A DNA stretch of 35,957 bases. It comes from a virus. The translations under genes were made by a program, and so were the position numbers. Of the stretch, positions 1-35,957 are shown in pieces. Numbering within the stretch: the stretch's first letter is position 1; every line of letters starts with the position of its first letter. Below the pieces are notes generated by a model that saw nothing but the letters and a program-made list of their open reading frames with translations, did no database searches and was not told the origin of the DNA. Where the stretch lies: IMG/VR virus record IMGVR_UViG_3300020446_000034, positions 1-35,957 of that record; one strand, 5' to 3'.

Positions 1-132
1 GAACCTCTTAACAAAAAAGAAGTTGAACAGTTACTAGCATCACAGTCTGGTGGATATCAAACCGTTAGAATTGAAACACCGATTAAAATTATTGGTGCAG
101 AAATTGTAGATCCTGATTCTCCTAAAAAATGA
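1..132 (+). CDS. C-terminal part of a small conserved protein that wraps around the window ends
   Basis: The frame is open from base 1 and stops with TGA at 130-132, giving 43 residues that end in IIGAEIVDPDSPKK. There is no start here. The gene that begins at 35889 runs to the last base in exactly the frame that continues at base 1, so I read the two pieces as one 66-residue protein. The combined protein is charged and lysine/glutamate-rich at the N-terminus and has no signal peptide or membrane segment. Its stop overlaps the next start as ATGA (129-132), the first of the tight overlaps in this plus-strand unit. I recall similar small proteins beside the following genes in marine cyanophages, but I assign no function. 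Confidence 0.75.
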   Translation, partial: EPLNKKEVEQLLASQSGGYQTVRIETPIKIIGAEIVDPDSPKK

Positions 133-656
133 AAAAATTCTTACCTTTGATTTTACTGGCATTTCCAACAGTTAGTTTTGCAAACATCACTCATTCGATC
201 CAATCTGTAGCGTCAGTCTCAACCGTCGCAGCTTCAGCCACTAGCGAGCGTATTGGATCTTCTATAAGTGTCGCAGGTACAAACGTGACACCAAAAGCAA
301 ACACTGTTGCCGGTCAGATAGGTTCTCTTGATTTGTCCGATAATGGTATCGCTAATGGTGTTCCTACTGTTGATTACGATACTAGCTTTAATGTAGTCAA
401 CACAGGTGATGCTTTCTCGGCGAGCGAGACTTACATCCAAGCTGACGCCGTACCAAGCTTACTATCTGCTACGGTAACCAACGGTGCGGTTCCGTCTTTA
501 CCATTGTTAGGCAAGAACACAGTAGTCGCAGGCGGTGACCCGGGTTCTGTTGCTATCACATTAGATAGTGGACAAGGTTTAACTGTAAACCTATCTGATA
601 TGGGTGCTGGTACAACTGCAACGCTTCAATCAACAATCACTCTTGGCTTGGATTGA
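129..656 (+). CDS. Secreted low-complexity protein of cyanophage type
   Basis: 175 residues starting with a clear signal peptide: MKK, a hydrophobic core LPLILLAFP, then a likely cut after SFA-N near residue 19. The mature part is rich in Ser, Thr, Val, Ala and Gly, with beta-strand-like repeats around ATSERIGSSISVAG and SETYIQADAVPS, and has no cysteine. It resembles, from memory, a family of hypothetical proteins found in small plus-strand clusters of marine cyanophages, often with the next two genes. The ATG overlaps the previous stop (ATGA) and no Shine-Dalgarno is visible, so translation is probably coupled. Role unknown; a surface or virion-associated beta protein is only a guess. Confidence 0.85.
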   Translation: MKKFLPLILLAFPTVSFANITHSIQSVASVSTVAASATSERIGSSISVAGTNVTPKANTVAGQIGSLDLSDNGIANGVPTVDYDTSFNVVNTGDAFSASETYIQADAVPSLLSATVTNGAVPSLPLLGKNTVVAGGDPGSVAITLDSGQGLTVNLSDMGAGTTATLQSTITLGLD

Positions 657-1081
657 TGAGATGGTTATTGCTTTTGTTTATAGCTTTTCATAGTTCGTAT
701 GCACAGGCTACCACTCCTAGGTTCAGTGCGAATCAGATGCAATCTACAAGCAAAAGTGTTTCTACTATCAATGAAACTATTGTTACTGAAAACTACAGGA
801 CAGGTTATTCGTACAGTGTACAAGGACATAACATCAAAGTTAAAGACGGTACTGTCATATCACCTGATGCCACATATACTACAAGTCAAAACACAGGAAA
901 GGTTAGCTTTCAATGGGTGACTCCAGAATTAACAAGCAAACCTCAATGGACAATAGTAACAGAAGGCTCAGACTTTTCTCTCGTAGAGAACTTTCTTGCT
1001 CCGGGACTAGACGCAGTGTCAATTATCACAAGAAATCAAACTATAGAAACTGTGCAAGACTCTGTAACGCTATTTCAATAG
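656..1081 (+). CDS. Secreted beta-rich protein, second gene of the plus-strand cluster
   Basis: 141 residues. The start is the ATG at 656, which overlaps the previous TGA as TGATG; a TTG one codon upstream is less likely. It has a signal peptide (MRW, then LLLLFIAFHSSYA, cut near residue 17), followed by a Thr/Ser-rich chain with TETIVTENYRTGYSYSVQGHNI and a C-terminus EDSVTLFQ-like (QDSVTLFQ). I recall related cyanophage proteins with the same layout and a similar terminal SVFSQ. No enzymatic motif is seen. Its last 169 bases also lie under the start of the next gene, which is read in another frame. Confidence 0.85.
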   Translation: MRWLLLLFIAFHSSYAQATTPRFSANQMQSTSKSVSTINETIVTENYRTGYSYSVQGHNIKVKDGTVISPDATYTTSQNTGKVSFQWVTPELTSKPQWTIVTEGSDFSLVENFLAPGLDAVSIITRNQTIETVQDSVTLFQ

Positions 1082-1716
1082 CTTTATTATGTTCTACACC
1101 TGTACATGCAAACACCACAATAAGCTCACCTTCAAGTTCAACTCAGTCTACAGTGGTAAATCAGGGTTTCCAGCAGATATCAGGATCTTTCCCTACTCAT
1201 AGATTTTCAAACGGAATACAATGCCAGTTGCCTACACTATCTTTTAGTCCTTTCATTACTAAAAATGAAGGCTTTAACACTCCAAGAATTACTACATCAC
1301 GAACCAATATATATGACACTGCAACGGACAGCGAGACAGGCCAGTTGCTAAATCCGGGAAGTATTCTATATGTCGCAGAACAGGAAAGAATAGATCAGAC
1401 AAACCATAATCTATCTTATGGAGCAACTCTTAGCATCCAAGTACCATTGGGAAAGAGATACAATGATGAGTGCTTGGCAAGTGCGCAAGCCCATAGGAAA
1501 ACACAGGAGTTTATGTTAGAAGCTAAAAAACTTGAAGTTAATCTTAACAGACTAAAAATATGTGCTGAACAATTGAAACTTGGTATTAAATTTGCAAAAG
1601 GCTCAGAAGATGAAGTTTCTTGTCGCAACGTAGTTTTAACAACAATTCCAAATCAGATATTACCGCATACGCACGAAATAAAAAAACCACCTAATAACCC
1701 AGAAAAAGGTGGTTGA
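913..1716 (+). CDS. Secreted cyanophage-type protein with an uncertain, overlapping start
   Basis: The body from about residue 68 (NTTISSPSS) is convincing: conserved-looking segments include CQLPTLSFSPFIT, LNPGSILYVAEQERIDQ and an amphipathic helix ALAQ-like stretch ending in LNRLKICAEQL. It resembles, from memory, a cyanophage family that follows the two preceding genes. The segment RLCNAISIALLCSTPVHA (near residues 49-67) looks like the hydrophobic part and cleavage site of a signal peptide. The only ATGs upstream are at 913, preceded by GGAAAGG ten bases before it, and 946. Either choice overlaps the previous gene by more than 130 bases and gives an unusually long arginine-rich leader. 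A frameshift or non-ATG start near 1072 is the alternative. The stop lies inside the terminator hairpin. Confidence 0.8.
   Translation: MGDSRINKQTSMDNSNRRLRLFSRRELSCSGTRRSVNYHKKSNYRNCARLCNAISIALLCSTPVHANTTISSPSSSTQSTVVNQGFQQISGSFPTHRFSNGIQCQLPTLSFSPFITKNEGFNTPRITTSRTNIYDTATDSETGQLLNPGSILYVAEQERIDQTNHNLSYGATLSIQVPLGKRYNDECLASAQAHRKTQEFMLEAKKLEVNLNRLKICAEQLKLGIKFAKGSEDEVSCRNVVLTTIPNQILPHTHEIKKPPNNPEKGG
1680..1714. terminator. Convergent bidirectional terminator
   Basis: Perfect 8-bp stem AACCACCT (1685-1692) / AGGTGGTT (1707-1714) with a 14-base loop. Read on the minus strand the stem is followed by TTTTTTTATTT, a good intrinsic terminator for the long minus-strand unit ending at 1771. Read on the plus strand it is followed by a T-rich stretch (1715-1730), so it may also end the plus-strand unit, whose last stop codon lies in the stem. 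Confidence 0.75.
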
Positions 1717-1770
1717 TTTGATTTATTTTTGAATCAAGCTTATCTTAACTAAAAATATTTTATGGGCAAG

Positions 1771-2454
1771 TCAACGAACCTTGTTTTTCTTGCCCTTGAA
1801 TAGATTAGCAACACGTTTTATAACTTGCTTGGTCAATGGCTTTACAACCGCAAGAAGGAGAGGAACAGTTGCAGCCACACCTGCAATAAGAGCAGTAGAC
1901 ACAGTAACACTAGCACTTGGGATAAATTGATCGACCCAAGGGACTTCTTCCCATACCGCATTGCAAGATCCGTCCAATAACCCACGCTCATATTTTAACA
2001 AACGCTCCAACCTTAATTCATTACGCCAATCTCCCTTTCTATACGGTGCGTTTTTAGGTGGACATAATGGATAAAACTCTTCTGCCTTTTCTTCCTTTCT
2101 TGGTGGCATAAATGCACTCTTGAGTTTTATGCCTGATGAATATTGCGATGAGCTTTCTGTTTCTATTGTGTCTTGTGGATCGTAAACAATAGATCTAATT
2201 CTTTGTCTTTCTGCTTTTGGTGCAGTTGTTTTTTCTTCTTCAACAGGTACAGTAGCAGTTATTGGTCCTTGAGGACAGGTTGCATATTGCTTACGGTTAT
2301 AAAAAACTATTGTTGGATTCTGTGTTATCTTCAGATCTCTATCAACTAAATCACAGGCAGGTTGCACACCTGTTAAAACAAATTCAGTGACAAAGGGAAC
2401 AGAAGGAATATCAACAGTTGGTATCGTTATCTTCGGTACTTTTATACTTGGCAC
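1771..2454 (-). CDS. Cyanophage-type proline-rich protein with a C-terminal membrane segment
   Basis: 227 residues. The N-terminus is a run of IP-V/T-type repeats (KVPKITIPTVDIPSVP), followed by a Cys-containing middle with two short cysteine pairs (ACDL, ATCP; YPLCPP, GSCNA). Near the C-terminus is a hydrophobic segment TALIAGVAATVPLLLAVV (about residues 185-203), then a basic tail KPLTKQVIKRVANLFKGKKNKVR. I recall this layout (IPxV repeats, one membrane helix, basic end) in proteins of cyanomyoviruses and TIM5-like phages, usually next to a small one-helix protein like the one upstream here. Function unknown; a virion or membrane-anchored role is inference. It starts on the last base of the upstream gene and is the last gene before the terminator. 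Confidence 0.85.
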   Translation of the reverse strand: MPSIKVPKITIPTVDIPSVPFVTEFVLTGVQPACDLVDRDLKITQNPTIVFYNRKQYATCPQGPITATVPVEEEKTTAPKAERQRIRSIVYDPQDTIETESSSQYSSGIKLKSAFMPPRKEEKAEEFYPLCPPKNAPYRKGDWRNELRLERLLKYERGLLDGSCNAVWEEVPWVDQFIPSASVTVSTALIAGVAATVPLLLAVVKPLTKQVIKRVANLFKGKKNKVR

Positions 2455-2669
2455 TAAAACTTAGGTATTGAAATACCAGTGCTGCTAGGCATTGCCTTAT
2501 CTAATGCTTTTGGCATAAGTCCTTGTACTTTACCCATAACCTTTTCCATCATCATCTTTTCAAACTGTGGGCTTGTTAAGTAACGATATCCTGCATAGGC
2601 CCCACCTAAAGTTGAAATGCTGATAACAAACGATACGATAGATAAGATAGAAGAAATTTTATTTAACAT
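2454..2669 (-). CDS. Small single-helix membrane protein
   Basis: 71 residues from the ATG at 2669: MLNKISSILSIVSFVISIS then GGAYAGYRYL, one membrane helix followed by a methionine/lysine-rich amphipathic tail (FEKMMMEKVMGKVQGLMP) and SIPKF at the end. Longer forms are possible from an ATG at 2711 (preceded by AAAGG) or a GTG at 2756. I prefer 2669 because recalled cyanophage homologues begin about there. Its last base is the first base of the 227-residue gene, and these two types of protein tend to occur together. One helix and small size near the fibre region would also fit a pinholin, but nothing specific supports that. Confidence 0.7.
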   Translation of the reverse strand: MLNKISSILSIVSFVISISTLGGAYAGYRYLTSPQFEKMMMEKVMGKVQGLMPKALDKAMPSSTGISIPKF

Positions 2670-2770
2670 GATTAGAGATGCATTTTTAAAGGCATTAGTG
2701 CCTGTTACCATTATAACCTTTGTATCTGTAATGGCTATTGCACCTCTATATGTCACGTTATCTGTAATGA

Positions 2771-3130
2771 CTAGAAGCTATACTTCAAACCAACCTTAGT
2801 TCCGTATGTATTCACGTCATCTGTGACAACAGCGAACTCACCATAAGCATTTAATTTATCGCTTAAGTCATATCCACCACCAACTTTACCAGAAAGCTTA
2901 GTATCAGAATCTCCTACAGAAGGATTAATAAAACTAGGACCACCTTGTAGGTAGAAGGATCCGTTTTCTCCAACAGTGTTTTCGTAACCGATGTGAAGGT
3001 CTATGACATTACCACCCCACTCAGAGCCTACGTTAGTTTGATTAAATTCTGGGTTTAAATAGAAACCTGCATAAGCTGGAACGCTAAGTGCTACAGACGC
3101 AGCAGATAGTGTTAAAACTTTCTTTAGCAT
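2771..3130 (-). CDS. Small outer-membrane beta-barrel (porin-like) protein
   Basis: 119 residues with a signal peptide MLKKVLTLSAASVALSVPAYA (cut before GFYLNPE). The mature chain has alternating beta strands (IDLHIGYEN, GSFYLQGGPSFI, LSGKVGGGYDLS, KLNAYGEFAVVT) and ends YGTKVGLKYSF, with the terminal phenylalanine typical of proteins inserted by the BAM machinery. About 100 mature residues would make only a small barrel or half-barrel. I recall similar proteins in many marine cyanophages. It sits alone between two spacers, just after the tail-fibre cluster. A role in altering the host envelope late in infection is inference. Confidence 0.85.
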   Translation of the reverse strand: MLKKVLTLSAASVALSVPAYAGFYLNPEFNQTNVGSEWGGNVIDLHIGYENTVGENGSFYLQGGPSFINPSVGDSDTKLSGKVGGGYDLSDKLNAYGEFAVVTDDVNTYGTKVGLKYSF

Positions 3131-3151
3131 AATTTTTAAAAATTAAAGTTT

Positions 3152-3180
3152 TATATTAATTGATCTCTAAGTATTTACAA
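3152..3180 (-). promoter_or_regulatory. Possible sigma-70-type promoter for the beta-barrel gene
   Basis: On the minus strand TTGTAA (3180-3175) and AATATA (3157-3152) are separated by 17 bases, about 22 bases before the ATG at 3130. The spacer 3131-3210 is otherwise AT-rich with no gene. AT-rich DNA gives such matches easily, so this is weak. Confidence 0.3.
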
Positions 3181-3210
3181 CTAGCAGTGTATAAGTAAAT
3201 AATTTGACCT

Positions 3211-3648
3211 TTAACTACTAGGTTCTGTAGGCCAAGTAATGTTATATGGATCTGACTGTGTTGGTACGTCACGTAAAGCCTGTCTATAATTCTTCCAAGC
3301 GTCAGACAAGGTAAGATCGCTACTAGCTCTCCAATCAGTAACTTGCAATCTTTGATCTCTTTCTAACCTTATAGCAATCCATTTTTGATTAGTTAGTTCA
3401 GTTTGTTCATCTGCTGTTGTATTTTCTACTCTTACGTTATAGGCTTTACCACCTTCCACGTAAGCATCTACAATTAATAGTTTTTGTGTTGGTGTTGTAT
3501 AGCTTAGATTTTCTATAAGTTCTACTACATTATTTTCAGTAAGAAAATCTGCGTTTGGTCCTTCAATACTAAAACTTGTATTGGGAAAAAGTTGTTGAAT
3601 TGTACCAGTGTTTTTTACAGTAGTACCATCAATGATTGCGTAGTTCAT
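3211..3648 (-). CDS. Phage tail-fibre assembly chaperone-like protein
   Basis: 145 residues. The C-terminal third has the signature of the phage tail assembly chaperone family: R-x-x-RD-x-x-L-x-x-TDW near residues 97-110, then W-x-x-YRQALRDVPTQ at about 118-130 and a final ITWPTEP. The N-terminal half reads like a short beta domain. In other phages this motif belongs to small proteins encoded beside tail fibres that assist folding or attachment. Here it follows the lectin-like gene and the fibre gene, which fits. Start is the ATG at 3648, 8 bases after the previous stop. Confidence is high for the family, moderate for the chaperone role. Confidence 0.8.
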   Translation of the reverse strand: MNYAIIDGTTVKNTGTIQQLFPNTSFSIEGPNADFLTENNVVELIENLSYTTPTQKLLIVDAYVEGGKAYNVRVENTTADEQTELTNQKWIAIRLERDQRLQVTDWRASSDLTLSDAWKNYRQALRDVPTQSDPYNITWPTEPSS

Positions 3649-3656
3649 AAGTTAAT

Positions 3657-4577
3657 TTAAGGTAGCCCGAAACGGGATTTTTGAGCATTATATTGACTAT
3701 CAACATCAGCCTGTGAAAATGATTTATTGTATCCTCTTACAATTCCATATTTTCCAGTAAATTGAAGCCATCTTTCAGTAAGTCCAAATATAAAATTGCC
3801 ATAATAATTTATATTATTTGTAGCTGTATAAAATAAAGTTTTATTTCTGTACATATTTGTAGTATAAGTTGACCCGCTTACAGTTCTAGTAATAATTAAC
3901 TGTTCCCAACCAGTACTAAGAGGAGTCGTGTTTTGACCACTATAAGTAAAAGAGCTATTAGTAGCTATTGTACCTCCTTGCGAATTACTAAAATTACTTG
4001 AATTGTCACCGGGACTGTAAGTAAGACCACTGCTAAAACCTTGTTGCTTTAAAGTATTTGATACAAGGTGTAAACTAACTTTACGGAACATAAAACTTGG
4101 TGAAAAAATCATCCCATCACTCCATACATAAACAGCTTGTTGATCTGGTGTATTAACCTCTGTATTTGAAGATGAGTATGGATTACCAAAATCTGCATTA
4201 CAAATAAATTCAAAAGTAAACGGATGTATTTGATTAGAACTACTAGCACCAAAATAAGCAACACCACCTGATTCTGGTCTACGAAATATATTAATAGTTG
4301 GTTCTATACCATTACCAGAATAACGAGGACTACTTGCAGTATTGTTACTATTGGTCTTAACTAAATGTCCGCCTAATGAAGAACTATATCCATAACTATG
4401 ACCCGAAGAACCATAATTATATAATGTACCATTATTTCCATTACCTGTTAAATCAGTAATTCCACTGCTAGTTCTATTCCAGCAATTAGTATCCCCAAAA
4501 TCCCAATGTAAAGTAGCACCTGCGATAATAGCAGCAGTTTCACCGCCAGCAGCAGCACGAAGTCTATGCGATCTCAT
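3657..4577 (-). CDS. LamG/concanavalin-A-like structural protein, probable accessory fibre or receptor-binding protein
   Basis: 306 residues. After RLRAAAGGE, a short N-terminal motif common in cyanophage structural proteins, comes a jelly-roll lectin-like domain: LHWDFGDTNCW, ITDLTGNGNNGTLYN, an FTFEFICNADF strand, WEQLIITR, YRNKTLFYTA and the closing GKYGIVRGYNKSFSQADVDSQYNAQKSRFG. That closing pattern is typical of phage LamG-type proteins. The ATG overlaps the stop of the tail fibre (taATG) and has GGAGAT ten bases upstream. Such domains bind carbohydrate or glycan surfaces, so an adhesin at the fibre tip is likely by context. Confidence 0.8.
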   Translation of the reverse strand: MRSHRLRAAAGGETAAIIAGATLHWDFGDTNCWNRTSSGITDLTGNGNNGTLYNYGSSGHSYGYSSSLGGHLVKTNSNNTASSPRYSGNGIEPTINIFRRPESGGVAYFGASSSNQIHPFTFEFICNADFGNPYSSSNTEVNTPDQQAVYVWSDGMIFSPSFMFRKVSLHLVSNTLKQQGFSSGLTYSPGDNSSNFSNSQGGTIATNSSFTYSGQNTTPLSTGWEQLIITRTVSGSTYTTNMYRNKTLFYTATNNINYYGNFIFGLTERWLQFTGKYGIVRGYNKSFSQADVDSQYNAQKSRFGLP

Positions 4578-7500
4578 TAACCTAAATCTCCTACAGTTGC
4601 ACCATATAATGTACTGCCAACTTTAAATAATTCTATTGCTGTTGGTGTAGCTCCTCCTAATGTTGGGGCAGAACCTCCTACCCAAGTCATTGTAGGCCAA
4701 GTCATCGTATAAGAGGAACCACTCGCAGTAACTATAAGAAGCATTGATTGCCCAGTGGTTAGGCTATCAGTTGCAGTTCTATTTGCTCCTAATGTCCAAG
4801 TTTGTATTGTTCCATTAATAGGATCTAAAGCTACAGAAGAGGCATCTGTTATTGCAAAAACTGTTTCAGTTATTTCTTTTTGAAAAATAACTTCACCTGT
4901 AAACGTACCACCAGCAAGCGGCATTTTTGTTGAGTCAGTTGTAGATGGAGTTGTAAAACTTAAAACTCCATTTCCATCGGTCTGTAATAGTTGTCCGTTT
5001 GTTCCTACATTATTAGGCAAAGTTAATGTATAGCTTGCACCAGCAGAGTGTGGTGGTGAAGCAATTTGTACTCCGTGATTATTATTTGAGCAATTAAGTT
5101 TTATTGTCCCAACAGTACCAGTAGTTGTCCCATCACCTTTAATTTCAACAACACCAGCACCATTAGGATTTAAAACTATATTTCCGTCAGTTGTACTTGT
5201 ATTAATTTCATTGCTTTGTACATCTAAGTTACCACCTAGTTGCGGTGTTGTATCTTCACTGACATTCTGTAAATAACTGGATGGTATGGAAGTTAGATAT
5301 GTATTTGTATCAACGGTATAAGTACCAGCACCAGTACGTTTCATAAAACCATTAGACGTAAAATCACCATCTAAGATGGCACTATCTAATGCTGTCTTAT
5401 CTTCATCAGTCATTACACCCCAAGCTGATGTAGTTGCAGCAGCTAAATATATTTCAGATACGTACGTTGTATTGTTTTGATTTGTTTCTGATAATATTTT
5501 ATAATTACTTCCAGTTATAGTTTGGCTTAAATCTACGGTTGTAGTACCACTGCCATTATTAACAAAACTTAATGTACCGTTTCCATCTGTTTGTAAAACT
5601 TGTCCGCTACTACCATCTGCTGCGGGTAACGTAAACGTAATATCGTTAGGCTGTGAAGCTGGTGCTACAAAGCTTACCATATTAGCGTTACTGCTATCTC
5701 TATCAAATGAAAGCTTATTAGAACCTTGAATTTTTAATCTTCCATTTCCAGAGGTTACAATTTGAGGTGAGCTTGAAATTGGTGAATAAGTCCAATCATA
5801 TAAAGCAGTTGGATAAAATGCATTAGTATCGTTTATCCATGCAGTGCCATTATATTTAAGAACTTGCCCGTTAGTAACACTTGAAAGAGTTACATCTGTT
5901 AGTCCACTTAATGACGTTGCACCAGCACTGGGTAAAGATACAACATTATTTCCACCTTGGTTAGAAATATTATTACCACAATTGTGAAAAACATTTAATT
6001 CTTCATAGCATTGAATTTCAGCATTTAAACTTAAAAAAATAGCATCAAGACTAGTGTTGAAATCAAAAAAACTATTACCTTGTATTTGTCCATCACTATC
6101 AGTAGTAGCACCACTAGGATTTTCTATAGAAATTGCTACATTACTATAATTTGAATGAACATTTGTAGAAGTTGATTTAAAAAGATTACCATGTATATTC
6201 ACAATTCCACTGTCTTGCAATAACAAACATCCTCTAGATCTTTGTCCAGCAGGGTTAGATGTTAAATCTTTACCAGAAGAGAAAAATGAATTACTTATTT
6301 GTATTTCTTTACTGCTAATTGTATGAATACAGTGATGACTAACTACTGGATTTGAAGTATTCACAGGTTCAATTTGTGTAAGTGAATTAGTAAAAGCTGA
6401 GTTAGATACTCTTAATCCACCAGTTCCTATAAAAAAGATAGCTTTACGATTTTGTTGAAATATACAATTATTTACGAAAACAGTGTTTGCAGACAGATCA
6501 ATACTTATACCATGATTTCCATAAGTAAAACTACATGCATCAAAAAAATAACTACCTACAGTTAATCCATTTGTAGTGCTTATATTTACAGCAACACCAA
6601 GTTGTTTTCCATCAGTTCCCACGTTTTCTTGATCATGTTCTCCATAAAAATTACAATTTTTAAATGACACCTCACCTAGGTTATTAATTTTTACTGCATT
6701 TTCAAAAAAAGTATCTATTAGAATACTGTTTGCAGTGGTTGTCCAAGGAACAAATTGACAACTTTCTATTACACAAGTTTGTGTAGGAACGCCTTGCAAA
6801 GTATTTCCTTTTAGATTTATACCATTAGCTAATTGACTTGTAGTTTCGTTTGCATAAGCAAATTCAATATTTCTTATACTAAATCTTGGTGCATTTAAAT
6901 TTGATGCATATTGGTTAGTTGAAATTGTGACATCTAAAAAATTAGAAGCAGAACAATTTAAGTATCTAATATTTGTAATACCATAATTATCACCCTCAAT
7001 TGTGTTGTTAGGTTGATGTAATTGAAAACTTACATTATCTACTTGTGCTGATTCTGGTATATCTAAAAAGTATCTATTAATTCCACTAGGCACTGTACCT
7101 AAAGGTTTAATTGGTATTATTTGGCCGATTAATACCCAATTTGTACCATTATCTGTGCTATACCGTAATTCTAAATATTCTCCATCCGTAGCAGGAGTGC
7201 TAACTTCTGGCTGATCTCCACCATTATTATTATCACCAATAATTGCGTCTATTTCTATTCTTGTTACTTTACCATTACCCTCAAAATTACTAGCATTTAT
7301 AGGTGCAAAGGCAACTGATCTTTCAGAATTAACTGATGAGATGCCAGGTATTCCTTGTTCTGAAAACCAAATATAATTTTGTCCTGTATTAAATCCACCA
7401 GTATTTCCACTAGCACTAGAATTTGATGTTCTAATTGATACGTTACCTACTACACTAGAAAAATCAGGATCTGCTGCAGAATTATTAGGATCAGTAATAA

Positions 7501-8218
7501 TTTCTCCTGTATTTTTATTTGCAATCGCAATTGTAGATAAAGTTGTTAATGTAGGTAGGCATTTTAAAATTACATTACCGTTACCTTTTATATGTAATTG
7601 TTCAAATTTTTCATCTAAAACAGCAAGTAGATCTTTGGTTATTACATAAACACCAGCATTTAATTGTAATTCCTTACCACTATTAGTAATACAGAAATTA
7701 ATAGCATTTTGTAAAGATAAAGTGTCATCAGTTACACCATCACCTTTAGCACCAAAATCAGCAGCATTAACTATATCGGCCAGTTTGTCTGTAAGAGTCC
7801 TTTCTACAGCACCAGTAACAGAACCAGAATCTACTGTATTGTCAAGAGAAACTTTTAATCCATTAGAAATAGATGAAAGTTGTCCGTTAATTTCTTGCAG
7901 ACCAAATAACAGTTGATCATTTTGAGTATCTAAATCATTTTCTGTTAAAACACTACCATCTTCAAAATCTACTTTTTTTGCTGATATATCAGTATCTCTA
8001 GTAAATTTTATAGCTGCACCATTAGCAGGTTCATTGCCACTGGTGAATGTGATTTGTGAAGTACTGGTAAAAGTGTAATGCGTACCGAGAGTTTTTAAAA
8101 CCCCATCGACCGTAACATCAACTTCAGATTGCTCTATGTATAAGAAGGAGATATCAAAAGGACCAGCAGTACCATTACCAGTACGGTCTGTAAAAGATGC
8201 AGCAGTGTTAGTAGCCAT
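4577..8218 (-). CDS. Tail fibre protein with T7 gp17-type N-terminus and beta-helix
   Basis: 1213 residues, about twice T7 gp17. Residues 1-110 match the T7 tail-fibre N-terminal module that docks to the tail (FDISFLYIEQSEVDVTVDG, LTENDLDTQNDQLLFG). Residues 153-195 (ADFGAKGDGVTDD, LQLNAGVYVI) open a pectate-lyase-like beta-helix that runs for several hundred residues. The distal part has two copies of the unit LP...G.GQ-L/V-LQTDGNG-L-SF (about residues 865 and 1075) and a C-terminal WPTMTWVGGSAPTLGG domain seen in cyanophage fibres. It follows the gp16-like gene by 2 bases with no Shine-Dalgarno, so it is probably translated by coupling. It should determine adsorption specificity. Confidence 0.92.
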   Translation of the reverse strand: MATNTAASFTDRTGNGTAGPFDISFLYIEQSEVDVTVDGVLKTLGTHYTFTSTSQITFTSGNEPANGAAIKFTRDTDISAKKVDFEDGSVLTENDLDTQNDQLLFGLQEINGQLSSISNGLKVSLDNTVDSGSVTGAVERTLTDKLADIVNAADFGAKGDGVTDDTLSLQNAINFCITNSGKELQLNAGVYVITKDLLAVLDEKFEQLHIKGNGNVILKCLPTLTTLSTIAIANKNTGEIITDPNNSAADPDFSSVVGNVSIRTSNSSASGNTGGFNTGQNYIWFSEQGIPGISSVNSERSVAFAPINASNFEGNGKVTRIEIDAIIGDNNNGGDQPEVSTPATDGEYLELRYSTDNGTNWVLIGQIIPIKPLGTVPSGINRYFLDIPESAQVDNVSFQLHQPNNTIEGDNYGITNIRYLNCSASNFLDVTISTNQYASNLNAPRFSIRNIEFAYANETTSQLANGINLKGNTLQGVPTQTCVIESCQFVPWTTTANSILIDTFFENAVKINNLGEVSFKNCNFYGEHDQENVGTDGKQLGVAVNISTTNGLTVGSYFFDACSFTYGNHGISIDLSANTVFVNNCIFQQNRKAIFFIGTGGLRVSNSAFTNSLTQIEPVNTSNPVVSHHCIHTISSKEIQISNSFFSSGKDLTSNPAGQRSRGCLLLQDSGIVNIHGNLFKSTSTNVHSNYSNVAISIENPSGATTDSDGQIQGNSFFDFNTSLDAIFLSLNAEIQCYEELNVFHNCGNNISNQGGNNVVSLPSAGATSLSGLTDVTLSSVTNGQVLKYNGTAWINDTNAFYPTALYDWTYSPISSSPQIVTSGNGRLKIQGSNKLSFDRDSSNANMVSFVAPASQPNDITFTLPAADGSSGQVLQTDGNGTLSFVNNGSGTTTVDLSQTITGSNYKILSETNQNNTTYVSEIYLAAATTSAWGVMTDEDKTALDSAILDGDFTSNGFMKRTGAGTYTVDTNTYLTSIPSSYLQNVSEDTTPQLGGNLDVQSNEINTSTTDGNIVLNPNGAGVVEIKGDGTTTGTVGTIKLNCSNNNHGVQIASPPHSAGASYTLTLPNNVGTNGQLLQTDGNGVLSFTTPSTTDSTKMPLAGGTFTGEVIFQKEITETVFAITDASSVALDPINGTIQTWTLGANRTATDSLTTGQSMLLIVTASGSSYTMTWPTMTWVGGSAPTLGGATPTAIELFKVGSTLYGATVGDLG

Positions 8219-8220
8219 AG

Positions 8221-11200
8221 TTAGTTAGCGTTAAGTTGTTGAAATCCTTCAAGGATGTCTTCGTTAGCTTCTTTTCTAACGGCAGATTGTTTCCGTTTAT
8301 ATTCTAGTTCACGTTCTGGATTTTTACTTAACCATATTTGTTTGCCTGCTTTTTTGTATTTATTGACAATACCTCTCAATATTCCCTCCGCCAAATCTCT
8401 GTTAGCTTCTTGTGCCTGTACTTCTATATCCATATTGTTCTGTTCTATCAATTCACCTCTCACACTTTTCATAATTGCTTGAAAATCTTTTTGTTGAATT
8501 CTGTTGTGTAAAGCTCTGACCATAGTTACACCATTAATTTTTACAAAAGCAGTTTCTTCAATAAGGTCAAGATGTTCTTCATACGTTAGTTCTATTCCAC
8601 TTCCAATTGCTTCGCCACTAGCTAATCTTGTAAGAGCTAATTCATCTGATGGTTGAGTTATCCTTGCGCCAATATCATCAAGTGTTGTAAGAACATTGTT
8701 ATTGATACTACTTGTTTCTTTAATTGGATTAAGAACACTCATATTATCAGGACCGAAGCCAACTGGGTATTCAATGATAGAACCAGTTATAAAGTTTCTC
8801 ATTGGCCTAAGACCACCACTATATCCAGGTATTGTTGTTGCTAATTCGTTATGAAACTTTCTTAACCATACAAAATTATCATCACCTGCTCTTGTTTTTT
8901 TATCTAATATCTCTTTATCAGAGGTTACGTTTCTTTTTACTGATCTACCAAGCGCACTGAATGGATTGACAGTAGCTGCTGCTCTTCTGGCTAACCAATT
9001 TTGAAAAAATTGTGGTTTTCCTAACAAATCAGCAAGCTCAGTAATACCTTGTAAATAAGTTTTATTTGTAATATTACGACCTAATGCGACAGAAGCAGCT
9101 ACACCAAAATCATCACGATCTTGTTTACTTAAACCGCCTGTAATAGCTGCTGCATCAGCAGCCATCATTAAGAAAGAAGCCCAAGGGTCTAATCTCCTAA
9201 AGCTGACATATTTATACCTTGGCTTGCCATCTTTACCCATTCTTACATTGCCATCTCCGTCTTTTAAAAGAAATCTAAAACTATAAGGTTGCCAACCTGT
9301 AGCTCTCTTTTGATTAAGCATATTGAAATCAGAAGGGCCACCACCAGTAATTGCTAGTTCAGACATTGGATCATTTATTGAAAATGCTGTAGCACCTGCT
9401 ATTGACCATATTGCACCCCCCAAATACATTTCACCTCTTGCTTTTGCGGCCACAGATGGATCAGCACTTCTAAGTGCTTGTCTATATTCTTTTAAAGCCA
9501 TATTAACTCCAGGAGTTCTTCTTACTTGTGCTTTAAATATATTTACTGGTGTTCTCACAAAAGGTAAGACCACTCTTCCAAAAGGATGTCGTGAAACTCC
9601 TTGTATTGCAGCACCTAAACTATCCTCTGGCAAATCAGCAGTAAATGTTGTTTCAGCAGCATATTTTTGTGCTTTATCGTATAGATCTATAACAGATTTG
9701 TCTTTTATATTTGCCATGCTGTTTTTATTGACAATTTCAATAGTGCCATCAAATTGTTCTTGTATATGTTTTTGTAAATCAGCACCTTGCAAACCTTTTC
9801 TCATGCCATCTTCCCAAGCACTTGCTTTTACATAAGCTCTAAAGTTAAGTTGTTTAAAGAACTCGTCTTCTGCAAGTAAAAATCTACCTGGTAAACGAAT
9901 AATAGTACCTAATCCATTTACAATATTTGCTAAATTTCCATTTCCTTCCATTCTTATTTGAAAACGATCAGCTTCTTGTATCATTGCACCAGGATTAACA
10001 ATATTATCTTCAATTTGAAATGCTTGCTTTGCTGCTTTTAATGAATCAGTAATAGATGCCATAAGATAATACAGTTCTTTACCACCTCTCATAGCTTGCA
10101 TTTGATCAAAACCTTGACGAGAAACAGAACCTAATGTGTTTTCTAATGGCCTTGCTAATGTATTTAAAGCAGTGGACATTATATTTACAGCATGTGTTTC
10201 TGGGCCAGACAATATTGAGTTTATAAAAATTTCATTTTGTATTTTTACTCCTCTCATAAATTTACTTTCATTAGCCATCTTTTGTAAGGCTTGAGGATTG
10301 CCTTGTGCAGCTTGTAATTTCTTTGTAATTATTCTTAGTCTTTTCCATGATGCCTTATCACCTTTTTCAGCAGCTTCTAATATTTCTTGCATTGAAAATT
10401 CAACTAATGGATCTGTAGGTTCTTTTACAGTTCCTCTAATATCAGTCGCTTGATCTATTGCTTTTTCTGCTGGTGTTCTACCTGCTAAATCATCTATAGA
10501 AGCTGCTACATTACCTACTCCACCACCTACTCTATTAGCAGCTAATGTTTGTGCTGGTACTGTTTTTAAAGGTTTGTTAAGAGTAATAAGACCGTCTAAT
10601 ACTTTTGCTTCTGTAATGAATTGTTCTTTTAACTCTTCAGTTAAACCACTTTTATTACCTGTAGCTAAAGTTTCATCTATAGTTTTTGCTAATGATGCTA
10701 AATTAATAGCATTTCTATTCATTAATTTATTCATAGCAATTAATACTGCAGGTAGGTCTTCCTCTCCTCCTCTGCCATATCTAGCATTAAATAATCTTGC
10801 AGACTCTATGGTTTCTTGTGGTAATAAACTATTTGCAGATTGAACCATATCTTTAAATGTTCTTTTATAAGGCCAAGCATTATTAGCATCAAGTTCTTTT
10901 AATTTGTCTGCTTCATCAAGAATTAGTTTTTGCACATCAGGATCACCACCACCTGTAAATTTAGGATTAAATGTTGTTTGTACTTTTGGATCTGCTAAAG
11001 CGTCAAGATCTACTTTATTAATATCAATTTGATTTGTAGGATCAAAATATATTCTTACCTGATGTAATCTTTTACCTTTACCTGCTTTCTTTCCTCCTTG
11101 ATGAGTAAACCCACCAAAACCTTTTCCTTTAAAGTAATCTTGAAAATTACCAAATATTTCATCAATAACTGTATTAGAACTTACACCTCGTCCATTTGCA

Positions 11201-12654
11201 TAATCTCTTATTTCATCAAATAGTTGAGATAATGTGTAGTTGTCACCTAAATCATTAACTGCTTCTGAAACTATATTTTCATAAGGTTCATCATCAAAAT
11301 TATTTATAAAAGTTTTTAATTCTGCATCAACAGATTGATCTAAGTCATAGAAATTTACAGGTTGTTTTTCTGCAATTTCATAGGTAACTGGTCTGAAATC
11401 TGGTGTTTGAGGAGGGTTATCTGCTAACTCATCTAAACGATCAGCTATTTTATTAAAAGCATCAACATTAGTTCTTGAGCCACCAGAAAATTTATTATCT
11501 ATTGGAAATTGTCTAGCCTGTCTAGCAAGATCTCTCAAGCGATCAGCAGACGGAACTTCAATACCAGGTCTTACTAATTGATTTAATTCTGCATCTGTTA
11601 TATCTAATTTAGCTAAATCACTTTGTATTCCAAAAGGTAAGTCGCCAATTCTTTTAACCCCTTTAGCAATAGGTATTTCTGGTTTTAAGAATTGTTTTTT
11701 ACCTTTCTTTTGATATTTGCTACCAGTAATTAAATCATCTGTTGTATAGAATCCATTACCATAAATATTTTGTGATGATACTGCTTCTCCACCTTCTTGA
11801 AGTGTTATTTCTTGTGACGTACCATGATAAAACTTACCTTGACCTCTAGTATCAGGTAAATCAAACTTTACTGGTGTTGTATTTTTTGGTGTTACCTTAG
11901 TAGGTTGTTTATCAATACCAAGATCTAATATTTCATCACCAAGATTATCAACAACATTATCTGTCATTAATATTTCATCTCGTCTTGACAACCTTTTTAT
12001 TACTCTTTCATATAACTCAGGTGTTTTCTTTATAGCTTTGACACCAAGACCTAAAGCAGTAAGAGCTTCACCTGCTACTAATCCACTTGCTGCCTGCCTA
12101 AAACGTGCATCTGCAACACCTATCTCTTCTGGTGTCTTTGCTTTTAAAACGTCAGTAATAACACCCCCTAGTCTTGGGTGCTTGTCGATCATATTGAACA
12201 AGTTCTCTTCATAAGGATCTTGTACAACAGCATCAGTGATAAAACCTGCAAAAGCATTTCTTACCCACGCATTATTCATTCCTACTAGCTTTGTACCTTT
12301 CAATCCTTTACTAATAACACCAGCAGGTAATAAGAACTGTGTTATAGCCTGTGGTACGGTATATGCCCAATCCTCCTTATCACCTTTTATTTCAAGACCT
12401 AATGCCTGTAAATCTATAAGCTCATTATTATCGTATGGATTACCAACAGCATAATCATAAATATCATCTACAAACTCAACCGTTTCATTAACAGCTTTCA
12501 AAGGACCAGATAAAGCACCTCTGATAACTTTAGAAGTTTTAGTTTGTTTTAATTTTTTACTAAGTTCCTTTTGACTTGCACGAAACTTTTCATTGCGTTC
12601 TTGTCTCTCTTGATTAAATTTAGACAAACGAGTTATTGGGTTTGAATCAGTCAT
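8221..12654 (-). CDS. Large internal virion protein (T7 gp16 position) with ADP-ribosyltransferase-like segment
   Basis: 1477 residues, the largest gene, in the T7 gp16 position between the gp15-like core protein and the fibre. T7 gp16 is ejected first and forms part of the DNA-entry channel. Residues about 274-545 look like the ART domain of phage polyvalent proteins: FYHGTS (275-280), GNGFYTTDD (299-307) and a closing HQVRIYFDPTNQI (531-543), with H277 and Y303 in the expected places. No transglycosylase motif is seen here, unlike T7 gp16. The second half is helical with several hydrophobic glycine/alanine stretches, such as GGAIWSIAGATAFSI. It starts 2 bases after the upstream stop. Confidence 0.88.
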   Translation of the reverse strand: MTDSNPITRLSKFNQERQERNEKFRASQKELSKKLKQTKTSKVIRGALSGPLKAVNETVEFVDDIYDYAVGNPYDNNELIDLQALGLEIKGDKEDWAYTVPQAITQFLLPAGVISKGLKGTKLVGMNNAWVRNAFAGFITDAVVQDPYEENLFNMIDKHPRLGGVITDVLKAKTPEEIGVADARFRQAASGLVAGEALTALGLGVKAIKKTPELYERVIKRLSRRDEILMTDNVVDNLGDEILDLGIDKQPTKVTPKNTTPVKFDLPDTRGQGKFYHGTSQEITLQEGGEAVSSQNIYGNGFYTTDDLITGSKYQKKGKKQFLKPEIPIAKGVKRIGDLPFGIQSDLAKLDITDAELNQLVRPGIEVPSADRLRDLARQARQFPIDNKFSGGSRTNVDAFNKIADRLDELADNPPQTPDFRPVTYEIAEKQPVNFYDLDQSVDAELKTFINNFDDEPYENIVSEAVNDLGDNYTLSQLFDEIRDYANGRGVSSNTVIDEIFGNFQDYFKGKGFGGFTHQGGKKAGKGKRLHQVRIYFDPTNQIDINKVDLDALADPKVQTTFNPKFTGGGDPDVQKLILDEADKLKELDANNAWPYKRTFKDMVQSANSLLPQETIESARLFNARYGRGGEEDLPAVLIAMNKLMNRNAINLASLAKTIDETLATGNKSGLTEELKEQFITEAKVLDGLITLNKPLKTVPAQTLAANRVGGGVGNVAASIDDLAGRTPAEKAIDQATDIRGTVKEPTDPLVEFSMQEILEAAEKGDKASWKRLRIITKKLQAAQGNPQALQKMANESKFMRGVKIQNEIFINSILSGPETHAVNIMSTALNTLARPLENTLGSVSRQGFDQMQAMRGGKELYYLMASITDSLKAAKQAFQIEDNIVNPGAMIQEADRFQIRMEGNGNLANIVNGLGTIIRLPGRFLLAEDEFFKQLNFRAYVKASAWEDGMRKGLQGADLQKHIQEQFDGTIEIVNKNSMANIKDKSVIDLYDKAQKYAAETTFTADLPEDSLGAAIQGVSRHPFGRVVLPFVRTPVNIFKAQVRRTPGVNMALKEYRQALRSADPSVAAKARGEMYLGGAIWSIAGATAFSINDPMSELAITGGGPSDFNMLNQKRATGWQPYSFRFLLKDGDGNVRMGKDGKPRYKYVSFRRLDPWASFLMMAADAAAITGGLSKQDRDDFGVAASVALGRNITNKTYLQGITELADLLGKPQFFQNWLARRAAATVNPFSALGRSVKRNVTSDKEILDKKTRAGDDNFVWLRKFHNELATTIPGYSGGLRPMRNFITGSIIEYPVGFGPDNMSVLNPIKETSSINNNVLTTLDDIGARITQPSDELALTRLASGEAIGSGIELTYEEHLDLIEETAFVKINGVTMVRALHNRIQQKDFQAIMKSVRGELIEQNNMDIEVQAQEANRDLAEGILRGIVNKYKKAGKQIWLSKNPERELEYKRKQSAVRKEANEDILEGFQQLNAN

Positions 12655-32581: not shown

Positions 32582-32624
32582 TGTTGTTAATAAGTTCTGG
32601 GGCTTAGGATCTATTTGTGGTAGT

Positions 32625-32945
32625 CCTATGCGTAGGATATATAAGTGTGCGCACCGATGAAATAAAATAACAAATCCTTAACACTTTGTAACAATAGACC
32701 CTTTATATACCCCCTATGTTCTATTTTTTGTGTCCAAATTGTCCGTTATTGTGTCCAAAGCTATCAAAACCCTATCTATTACTAGTGTGTAGAACTGTCT
32801 CTATGACAGTACTGCAATAAAAAGACTGTAGTTATAGTAAGAATCCACACAAAAAAGTCTATGCATAGGGGGGACTTTTAGTTTTGTATATATGCGTAAA
32901 CCCCTCAAATTTTTGTTCCAAAATTATTTCAGACCTATGTATAGG
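32625..32945. repeat. Three related palindromes CCTATG-N-TAGG
   Basis: CCTATGCGTAGG at 32625-32636, CTATGCATAG (perfect) at 32859-32868 and CCTATGTATAGG at 32934-32945. The middle one is itself nested in arms AAAAGTC (32853-32859) and GACTTTT (32873-32879). Three variants of one 10-12 bp palindrome within 320 bases of non-coding DNA suggest a protein-binding site. Confidence 0.55.
32794..32810. promoter_or_regulatory. Operator-like dyad
   Basis: ACTGTCTCTATGACAGT: perfect six-base arms around five bases, 17 bp long, the size of many repressor sites. No regulator gene is identified to pair with it. Confidence 0.4.
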
Positions 32946-33024
32946 TTATCTATAAGTTATCTAATAGTTATCTATTAGATACCTAATAGTTGACTATAAG
33001 AAAACTATAAAAGTTAACTATAAG
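32945..33024 (+). repeat. Iterons GTTRWCTATAAG
   Basis: Full copies are GTTATCTATAAG (32945-32956), GTTGACTATAAG (32989-33000) and GTTAACTATAAG (33013-33024). Partial copies GTTATCTA start at 32945, 32956 and 32967, spaced exactly 11 bp, about one helical turn. Phased short repeats in AT-rich DNA are typical of replication origins and of sites for cooperative binding. Confidence 0.6.
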
Positions 33025-33066
33025 ACCCCTATAGACTGCCCAGAAGTGTCTTATAGGGATCTTATA
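33019..33066. repeat. 15-bp inverted repeat with TATAGGG on both arms
   Basis: TATAAGACCCCTATA (33019-33033) and TATAGGGATCTTATA (33052-33066) match at 14 of 15 positions as an inverted repeat around an 18-base loop that contains CTGCCCAG. Each arm read outward gives GTC(T)TATAGGGRTCTTATA. Confidence 0.7.
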
Positions 33067-33209
33067 TTATTTATTTTAGAAGATTATTCTGATGATGATA
33101 GTTCTTTGGGGATTCTGTGACTTTGTAATTAACTATTATTGTCTTTAGTGTCTTAACTGGGCAGTAATTTGTCAGAGCCAAATCACTACCCACATCCTGT
33201 GGTCGCTAT

Positions 33210-33233
33210 CCCCCCCCCTATAGTCCCCCCCCC
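33210..33233. other. C9-TATAGT-C9 tract next to the terminase stop
   Basis: Nine cytosines (33210-33218), TATAGT, nine cytosines (33225-33233). On the minus strand this reads G9-ACTATA-G9 and contains ACTATAGGG, the core of the T7 promoter start region. It lies 32 bases after the large terminase stop. Homopolymer lengths may be affected by sequencing error. Confidence 0.6.
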
Positions 33234-33264
33234 TTTCATGGGGTTATTTATCTACAAGTGGAAC

Positions 33265-34986
33265 CTAATAAGTGTTACTTATAAATCCATCGGAGGAGGC
33301 ATTAGAATTTCTTATCTGTGCAGGTGTTAGTCCTAGTGCTGTTTGTGTAACAGAATTGTTAATAGAGGAACCCCAATTATCTAGGTGTATGGAGAGTAAT
33401 TCTTCTTTACGAGATCTTATATTACGGTCTTCATCCTGGTTCATATATTCAGTCCAGTAAGCTACAGCACCTGATAGAGCATCTAATATGTCATCGTGTA
33501 CAAGAGAACCTCTATGCTTGGTTATACGAGACATTTGATAGAAGAGTTGAAGCTTTAATTTTCTTTCTGGAGCTTCGTTAGGGTTAGATCTATAGTCTTT
33601 TTCCACTACCTTGCGGTCGAATATGAGCCTGTGAGAGTTCATAACAGGTTCTAAGGTATCTATTATCCTTAGTTCTTTAGTCTTTGTATTGCGTACGTCT
33701 TGTACTTCACAGGGATGATATTTCATTAGGAAGGGTTTTAATAGTTCAGCGAACATACCACCACCCATATTTGACTCAACGAGGATTGTATTTACCTTAT
33801 TTGTCTTGGCTATCTTGGATAGTGTTGTTAAAACAGCGTCTGAGTAGCCACCGTTTAGTCCACCAGCGTCTGGAACGTATAGATTACCGTTAAGCATCTT
33901 TACAACAGCGTATCCTGTGGCATCACGTCCTTTACCGGAGGGGTCAATGAACATAACAGAGCCTGTATATTCAATCCAATCACCGAATTGCTGTGCAGGT
34001 CTGTAGAAATGGTCTCCATTAAAGCCAACGCATGGTAATTCTTTGATGACGTACTCGGGAGAGGATGACCATATAACCTTTTCTGGTGCATGATCAGGGT
34101 TTACTGATGATATTATTAGGTCTGAAAGCTTGAGAGGGTAACGGTCTTGATCACTAAGGCTAGTGTCGAGCATGAATTGCAAGCTAAACCCCGAACGTCC
34201 ATAGGAGGCTTCACGTTCCATGAGATCTATTGATGAGAATCTATCAGGGTCAACAGGATCTTTAGGCTTTACAAGCTCTTCTGATAGCCTCTGAGCTAAC
34301 TTAGGAGCAAGTCTATCTCCATAGTTGTTTTTTAGTTCTGGATAACGTGCGGTCCATATACGTGTTGTATATCCACGCTCTTCTAATGTCAGATATAAAG
34401 ATTGTTCTGTTTGAGGTGTACCAAGAAAGGTAATTTTACCGCTTGGTTTCAGTATTGCATCAAATTCTTTTACAGCTTCTGATAGTTTGTCTCTCATCGG
34501 TTGAGTAAAGCTGTTATTTGGTACCTCTACGTCATCAGCAATCACTTCATCTGCTCTACTACCAGCCATCTGTCCTAAAACACCCTGAGACTTTACAGAG
34601 GGGGCATGATCAGCAGATGCAGGCCCAACATCAAAACTTATCTTACTGTTTCTCTGAGTGTCTTCTGGACGCAATGGAGCTAATATTGGCATCTCATTGA
34701 TAAGACGCATGGTAAATGTAGAGAAATTATCTGCTCTGTCTTTACTGGCTGAGACAACAAGGAACTTTAGTTGTGGATTCATCCGTAGTTTCCATACAAC
34801 ATAGGTAGAAGTTATCCAACTCTTACCCACCCCTCTAAACGCTTGTATGATCTTTCTACGAGGTCCATGCTGTAAATACTCAGCAATGTCTAATTGAACT
34901 GGTGTAGGGTCAGGTAGGTTTAAATGACGCCACGTTATGATTAGAAAGTATCTAAAGTCTTGTAGTTTCTCAGGAAGCGGTTGCAA
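33265..34986 (-). CDS. Large terminase subunit (T7 gp19-like)
   Basis: 573 residues; T7 gp19 is 586. LPDPTPVQLDIAEYLQHGPRR precedes Walker A AFRGVGKSW (49-57); Walker B lies in RADEVIADDVEV (144-155); coupling motif FLGTPQT (187-193); the RNase-H-like nuclease begins at FIDPSGKGRDATGYA with D348. It pumps DNA into the capsid and cuts concatemers. The start is a TTG at 34986 directly after the small-subunit stop; no ATG precedes the conserved N-terminus, so TTG is probably real. It is followed by the gene-free region expected to hold its target. Confidence 0.95.
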   Translation of the reverse strand: MQPLPEKLQDFRYFLIITWRHLNLPDPTPVQLDIAEYLQHGPRRKIIQAFRGVGKSWITSTYVVWKLRMNPQLKFLVVSASKDRADNFSTFTMRLINEMPILAPLRPEDTQRNSKISFDVGPASADHAPSVKSQGVLGQMAGSRADEVIADDVEVPNNSFTQPMRDKLSEAVKEFDAILKPSGKITFLGTPQTEQSLYLTLEERGYTTRIWTARYPELKNNYGDRLAPKLAQRLSEELVKPKDPVDPDRFSSIDLMEREASYGRSGFSLQFMLDTSLSDQDRYPLKLSDLIISSVNPDHAPEKVIWSSSPEYVIKELPCVGFNGDHFYRPAQQFGDWIEYTGSVMFIDPSGKGRDATGYAVVKMLNGNLYVPDAGGLNGGYSDAVLTTLSKIAKTNKVNTILVESNMGGGMFAELLKPFLMKYHPCEVQDVRNTKTKELRIIDTLEPVMNSHRLIFDRKVVEKDYRSNPNEAPERKLKLQLFYQMSRITKHRGSLVHDDILDALSGAVAYWTEYMNQDEDRNIRSRKEELLSIHLDNWGSSINNSVTQTALGLTPAQIRNSNASSDGFISNTY

Positions 34987-35774: not shown

Positions 35775-35888
35775 ACTTGTTACTAGATACTTCCCAATTA
35801 TGTATATGTTTGCTAATTTTGACTTGACTACCTCACACAGTCAATAAGCCCTATTACCTCCCTAATAGGGCTTTGTTATATAACTATT
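35775..35888. promoter_or_regulatory. Divergent intergenic region with operator-like dyad
   Basis: 114 bases between divergent genes. TTGACT (35824-35829), nine bases, AGTCAA (35839-35844) form a perfect six-base dyad. TTGACT also matches a -35 element, but no -10 at proper spacing is clear. The hairpin at 35846-35873 follows. Both divergent promoters must lie here or upstream, unless transcription enters from outside. Confidence 0.4.
35846..35873 (+). terminator. 11-bp perfect hairpin before the plus-strand unit
   Basis: AAGCCCTATTA (35846-35856), loop CCTCCC, TAATAGGGCTT (35863-35873), then TTGTTATA on the plus strand. It looks like an intrinsic terminator for plus-strand RNA from 35259-35486, or a leader hairpin/attenuator for the gene starting at 35889. 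The U-tract is imperfect. Confidence 0.5.
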
Positions 35889-35957
35889 ATGGAAGAACAA
35901 AAAAAGAAAAACCCCATACAAAAAATAAAAGAGACTATTGAAGATAAGGAAGAACAA
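35889..35957 (+). CDS. N-terminal part of a small conserved protein that wraps around the window ends
   Basis: 23 codons from ATG to the last base with no stop: MEEQKKKNPIQKIKETIEDK then EEQ. Strongly charged, probably helical. Exactly 69 bases fit before the edge, so the reading continues in phase at base 1 (EPLNKKEVEQLLAS...) to the stop at 132. The start follows a hairpin by 15 bases and lacks a Shine-Dalgarno. It is the first gene of the plus-strand unit. Confidence 0.7.
   Translation, partial: MEEQKKKNPIQKIKETIEDKEEQ

What the first reader, a model, noticed from the sequence alone, without database searches (positions are those of the whole stretch)
35889..35957. Window ends join in frame: probably a complete circularly permuted genome
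The open gene at the right edge (23 codons) and the open gene at the left edge (43 codons plus stop) are in the same phase and strand. The joined 66-residue protein is plausible, and the joined unit continues by ATGA overlap into the next gene. The gene set is also complete for a podovirus of about 36 kb.
Basis: partly seen in the sequence, partly recalled or inferred. Interest (0 to 1): 0.6.

Follow-up and report, generated by a model that had tools for sequence, protein, structure and literature searches.

The report
Near-complete phage contig, not gap-free circle
The two ends of this 36-kb ocean phage sequence do fall inside one and the same gene, but all six exact-matching relatives carry about 204-207 extra bases between them, so the sequence is an ordinary almost-complete assembly (about 99.4%) of a Prochlorococcus-type T7-like phage with a small gap rather than a closed genome.

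Summary
An open frame starts at ATG 35889 (23 codons to the edge) and continues in phase at 1-132 (43 codons plus stop), with an ATGA overlap into the next gene. Relatives show that the ends are neighbours on a circular map and halves of one gene. They also show that the join is not gap-free: in 16 relatives measured, DNA matching w35957 and w1 is separated by 204 or 207 bases, in frame. The real protein is 134-135 aa (DUF6450, phrog_2714). The artificial 66-mer lacks that domain and the hydrophobic helix, and no relative has the joined form. All six public contigs sharing the last 46 bases exactly continue with TTAGCTTTTATATC, not GAACCTC. In-phase joins of this length arise in about 23% of random cuts. 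A closed relative (38,245 bp) is colinear all round and holds the intact gene. The window is a linear, about 99.4% complete contig of an uncultured T7-like phage close to Prochlorococcus phage P-SCSP2 (MPP-C, no DNA polymerase). [quoted passage not shown] P-SSP7 was once misread the same way. Ordinary; low interest.

The parts
35889..35957 (+). 5' part (codons 1-23) of a 134-135 codon gene of the DUF6450 / phrog_2714 family, cut by the right contig end
   Evidence: Identical residues MEEQKKKNPIQKIKETIEDKEEQ in L001-L006 and L015, followed there by LAFISVVV...; six contigs share the last 46 nt exactly and continue with TTAGCTTTTATATC
1..132 (+). 3' part (last 43 codons plus stop) of the same gene, cut by the left contig end; 204 or 207 nt are missing between 35957 and 1
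   Evidence: Alignments of relatives resume at w2 or w4 after 204-207 extra nt; codon w1-3 is GAA (Glu) but Lys in 80 of 80 relatives
129..656 (+). next gene of the same + strand module (175 aa, phrog_564, starts like a signal peptide), ATGA overlap with the cut gene
653..1716 (+). further genes of the reversed module: 653-1081 (DUF6322, phrog_650) and 913-1716 (phrog_848)
33265..34986 (-). terminase large subunit, T7 type (PF22530, phrog_38), 77.5% identical to Prochlorococcus phage P-SCSP2
34987..35214 (-). T7-type terminase small subunit (PF11123 DNA_Packaging_2)
32582..33264 (.). 683-bp stretch without a convincing gene, after TerL and before the early genes; likeliest place of the physical genome ends (inference by analogy with T7 and P-SSP7)

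Best explanation
The window is a linear metagenomic contig covering about 99.4% of the genome of an uncultured T7-like marine cyanopodovirus related to Prochlorococcus phage P-SCSP2 (MPP-C clade). Assembly broke on both sides of a variable 204-207 bp stretch in the middle of one DUF6450-family gene, so the two contig ends are the 5' and 3' pieces of that gene. They look joinable in frame because the missing piece is itself a whole number of codons of that gene. Shown: the two ends are adjacent in relatives, the missing segment is there, and the gene set and synteny match. Inferred: that this particular strain carries the segment, that the break is an assembly effect, and that the virion DNA is linear with terminal repeats placed elsewhere.
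For: Contigs colinear with both sides of the ends carry exactly 204 or 207 extra bases, always in frame; L006 is 98% identical on both immediate flanks. 194 of the 205 loci with a match have the near-full gene and none has the continuous 66-aa form (the one 'joined' hit, L201, spans 354 bp and is a divergent full-length gene). All six contigs sharing the last 46 nt exactly continue with the missing segment, and the 30-nt junction word has no match in viral contigs. The missing part is most of the only Pfam domain (DUF6450, residues 18-81, E 7.7e-22), which the 66-mer lacks. Isolate P-SCSP2 has a DUF6450 gene in the same place. G012 (38,245 bp, 77-bp terminal overlap) is closed, colinear all round and has the gene. 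In close relatives nucleotide identity is 99.6% just left of the gap, 91.8% in it and 97.3% just right of it, with a 204/207 length polymorphism in the last codons before w1: a variant bubble between conserved flanks. G004, a 36,560-bp relative, is likewise a near-complete linear contig, lacking about 391 bp inside TerL.
Against: No reads of this sample are at hand, so that this strain has the segment is inferred from relatives. Over a wider set of 104 sequences the diversity profile shows no sharp step at the window's ends, so the cause of the break is not proven.
Confidence: 0.93

Rival explanations
1. One reading: the window is a gap-free circular map and this phage has a genuine 66-aa version of the gene (a natural 204-207 bp in-frame deletion).
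For: The frame stays open across the join, with an ATGA overlap to the next gene.
Against: No locus found has the short form. The deletion would have to coincide to the base with both contig ends; it would remove most of the conserved domain and the only strong hydrophobic segment; the join creates a Glu codon where 80 of 80 relatives have Lys; there is no terminal overlap to show closure.
Confidence: 0.03
2. The missing 204-207 bp is the phage's direct terminal repeat, lost from both ends in assembly or trimming; the window ends are then the boundaries of the unique part of a linear genome.
For: P-SSP7 has a 206-bp direct terminal repeat (PMC3350473), and T7-type terminase proteins are present.
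Against: The gap is inside a coding gene, upstream of TerS/TerL, whereas in T7 and P-SSP7 the ends lie beyond the last late gene and before the early genes. Relatives' contigs end at scattered places near the gene (w33, w64, w76, w35893, about w35880), not at one fixed base. The length match can be coincidence.
Confidence: 0.04

Closest known systems
Prochlorococcus phage P-SCSP2 (OM416780; MPP-C cyanopodovirus)
   Same: Colinear T7-like gene order; major capsid protein 91% and TerL 77.5% identical; no DNA polymerase; a reversed module with a DUF6450 gene between the tail genes and the terminase
   Different: 37,264 bp against about 36.2 kb; P-SCSP2 has an integrase gene; its DUF6450 protein is 84 aa; the reversed-module genes have diverged beyond tblastn detection; internal virion proteins only 26-27% identical
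IMG/VR contigs 3300030119_000165 (L001), 3300030118_003123 (L006), 3300020426_000015 (L005/G004)
   Same: 91-98% nucleotide identity on the sides of the window's ends, same order of the ends
   Different: They hold the 134-135 codon gene intact, with 204-207 bp that the window lacks
IMG/VR contig 3300020463_000003 (G012), closed circle of 38,245 bp
   Same: Whole-genome colinearity with the window, RNAP 87%, MCP 95%, TerL 95%
   Different: Has a 77-bp exact terminal overlap (closed); contains the intact gene and a longer spacer next to it

Membership tests
Complete circularly closed genome assembly | Overlap (direct repeat) between the two contig ends | tested here: not met
   No exact terminal overlap of 10 bases or more; IMG/VR class linear
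Complete circularly closed genome assembly | Sequence contiguous across the join in relatives | tested here: not met
   204-207 extra nt in the 16 relatives measured and in all six exact-end matches
Complete circularly closed genome assembly | Read pairs across the ends | not testable with these tools
   No reads available
T7-like podovirus, MPP-C-like lineage (P-SCSP1/P-SCSP2) | T7-like gene set and order (RNAP, primase/helicase, portal, MCP, tail tubes, T7 terminase) | tested here: met
T7-like podovirus, MPP-C-like lineage (P-SCSP1/P-SCSP2) | No family-A DNA polymerase | tested here: met
   PF00476 gives no match in the window while it rings in 10 of 14 controls; MPP-C phages lack it (PMC9860041)
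T7-like podovirus, MPP-C-like lineage (P-SCSP1/P-SCSP2) | Placement inside the MPP-C clade by a core-gene tree | not tested
   Only best-hit identities: P-SCSP2 is the nearest isolate record for MCP and TerL by a wide margin
T7-like podovirus, MPP-C-like lineage (P-SCSP1/P-SCSP2) | Infects Prochlorococcus | not testable with these tools
   Host inferred from P-SCSP2 only
Circularly permuted (headful) genome | Headful-type terminase | tested here: not met
   TerL matches phrog_38 and the T7 RNase-H-like terminase domain; TerS matches T7-type DNA_Packaging_2
DUF6450 (PF20048) / phrog_2714 protein, for the cut gene | Profile match over the domain | tested here: met
   Met by the relatives' full-length protein (E 7.7e-22); the joined 66-mer has no Pfam match and keeps only phrog_2714 positions 8-29

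The most novel reading that the evidence does not exclude
The 204-207 bp stretch is the phage's terminal repeat lying inside a coding gene, so that packaging would cut the genome within the DUF6450 gene and the gene would be whole only in the concatemer.
Probability: 0.04. Interest if true: 0.4.

Novelty: new member of a known kind. Interest (0 to 1): 0.1.

Why it matters
It corrects a plausible inference: in compact phage genomes an in-frame join of contig ends is weak evidence of completeness (about 1 in 4 by chance), and relatives show whether bases are missing. Filing the window as complete would add a false 66-aa gene and a false statement about genome ends, the same error once made for P-SSP7. 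The genome is otherwise a useful near-complete member of the abundant polymerase-less cyanopodovirus lineage.

Tried and rejected
Exact 30-nt junction word in viral contigs: no match. Megablast of window 1-12000 against phage records: no match. DUF6450 protein in bacterial and archaeal genome contigs: no relative. Enrichment of contig ends at the gene as a sign of physical termini: ends lie scattered, 2 of 19 within 400 bp of the 109-aa gene on the junction side, no fixed position (by eye). Exact pattern of w2-45 in viral contigs: no match. First fetch from genomes failed on a length limit and was repeated. PF20048 scan of the window itself found nothing, but its controls did not ring either, so it is not used as evidence. 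G022, G023 and G024 were fetched as possible further closed circles; none has an exact terminal overlap. Alignment entropy across the gene over 104 distinct sequences showed no sharp step at the window ends, so the variable-bubble account rests on the close relatives only.

Full report
OBSERVATION. The right edge holds ATG at 35889 and 23 open codons; the left edge holds 43 codons and TGA in the same phase and strand, and the stop overlaps the next start as ATGA. The joined frame reads 66 residues. There is no exact terminal overlap of 10 bases or more, and the record is classed linear in IMG/VR. As a clue to closure this is weak: random joins of two points in the window give a spanning ORF of at least 66 codons 23% of the time, and joins across a 150-260 bp deletion 24%.

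WHAT RELATIVES SHOW. A search with the joined 66-mer found 180 relatives in viral contigs, of which 80 were kept. Aligned to the window, those that cover both sides show the DNA of the right edge and of the left edge in the expected order and orientation, so the ends are neighbours on the map. But between w35957 and w1 they carry additional DNA, 207 bp in L001 and L002 and 204 bp in the 14 others measured, in frame, coding LAFISVVVRLVVVGWSGFIVSLNYITIPGYSNEPKDITFPASLLTGALASFGLEGAKKRGDGTYKPDE or a close variant. The whole gene is 134-135 codons. L006 is 98% identical to the window on both immediate flanks and has the segment. All six public contigs that share the window's last 46 bases exactly continue with TTAGCTTTTATATC. 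Of 205 loci with a match, 194 have the near-full gene; most of the rest are genes cut by a contig end or divergent forms, and none has the joined form. The join itself makes a Glu codon at a place where 80 of 80 relatives have Lys, so the first base of the window may be an end-of-contig error or a private variant.

THE GENE. The full protein belongs to phrog_2714 (E 2.3e-34) and Pfam DUF6450 (residues 18-81, E 7.7e-22), families of unknown function; more distant homologues (up to about 51% identity) are in T4-like cyanophages and marine single-cell viruses. The missing segment holds nearly all of that domain and the strong hydrophobic segment (mean hydropathy 2.2 over 19 residues); the 66-mer has no Pfam match and no hydrophobic segment. 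A small membrane protein encoded ahead of three exported-looking proteins on the opposite strand to the virion genes could be part of a lysis or envelope module; that is inference only. P-SCSP2 has a DUF6450 gene first in an equally reversed three-gene module at the same place.

THE GENOME. The gene set and order are T7-like: RNA polymerase, ssDNA-binding protein, endonuclease, primase/helicase, exonuclease, portal, scaffold, capsid, tail tubes, internal virion proteins, fibre, small and large terminase. There is no family-A DNA polymerase (with working controls). The closest isolate record is Prochlorococcus phage P-SCSP2 (capsid 91%, TerL 77.5%), of the MPP-C clade described as lacking DNA polymerase (PMC9860041). 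I did not build a tree, so clade membership is likely, not tested. G012 (38,245 bp) closes with a 77-bp exact overlap and is colinear all the way round, with the intact gene bridging the window's two ends. So the window lacks about 0.2 kb of about 36.2 kb, assuming that nothing else is missing.

WHY THE CONTIG ENDS THERE. In the close relatives nucleotide identity is 99.6% in the 69 nt before the gap, 91.8% in the gap and 97.3% after it, and the last codons before w1 carry a 204/207 length polymorphism. Conserved flanks around a variable stretch are what makes an assembler stop when several strains are present. G004 is a second near-complete linear contig of the group, broken in TerL with about 391 bp missing. 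This cause is inferred; reads would decide. The entropy profile over 104 more diverse sequences shows no sharp step at these positions.

CIRCULARLY PERMUTED? [quoted passage not shown] P-SSP7 was first called circularly permuted because it assembled as a circle, and turned out linear with 206-bp repeats (PMC3350473). The likeness of 206 to 204-207 tempts one to call the missing piece the terminal repeat. Against this, it is coding, lies before rather than after the terminase genes, and contigs of relatives do not end at its borders. The 683-bp stretch without a convincing gene at 32582-33264, after TerL, is the likelier place of the ends (inference).

VERDICT. Observation confirmed; interpretation partly supported: the ends are adjacent on the map and in one gene, but 204-207 bp are missing, the 66-residue protein was not found in any relative, and permutation is not supported. 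Ordinary near-complete contig of a known kind of phage.

Noticed in passing
window 1-35957: T7-like phage with its own RNA polymerase, primase/helicase and exonuclease but no family-A DNA polymerase, as in the MPP-C cyanopodoviruses.
   Followed up: yes
window 32582-33264: 683-bp stretch with no convincing gene after TerL, with direct repeats (22-24 nt units at 32936-33031), two inverted repeats (32945-32994, 33002-33072) and C-runs around 33210-33232; candidate region for genome ends, promoters or an origin.
   Followed up: partly
window 653-1081 and 913-1716: Two overlapping genes on the + strand in different frames (169 bp overlap), both with recognised families (DUF6322; phrog_848); the start at 913 may be too far upstream.
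   Followed up: no
window 35846-35874: GCCCTATTA..TAATAGGGC hairpin followed by T-rich DNA just upstream of the cut gene: looks like a transcription terminator between neighbouring units.
   Followed up: no
L001-L006, L015 and other loci, 134-codon gene: The DUF6450 gene shares exact runs up to 134 nt between contigs that differ by 10-20% elsewhere, and occurs in many otherwise unrelated contigs (for example G024) and, more distantly, in T4-like cyanophages: possible recombination hotspot or recent transfers.
   Followed up: partly
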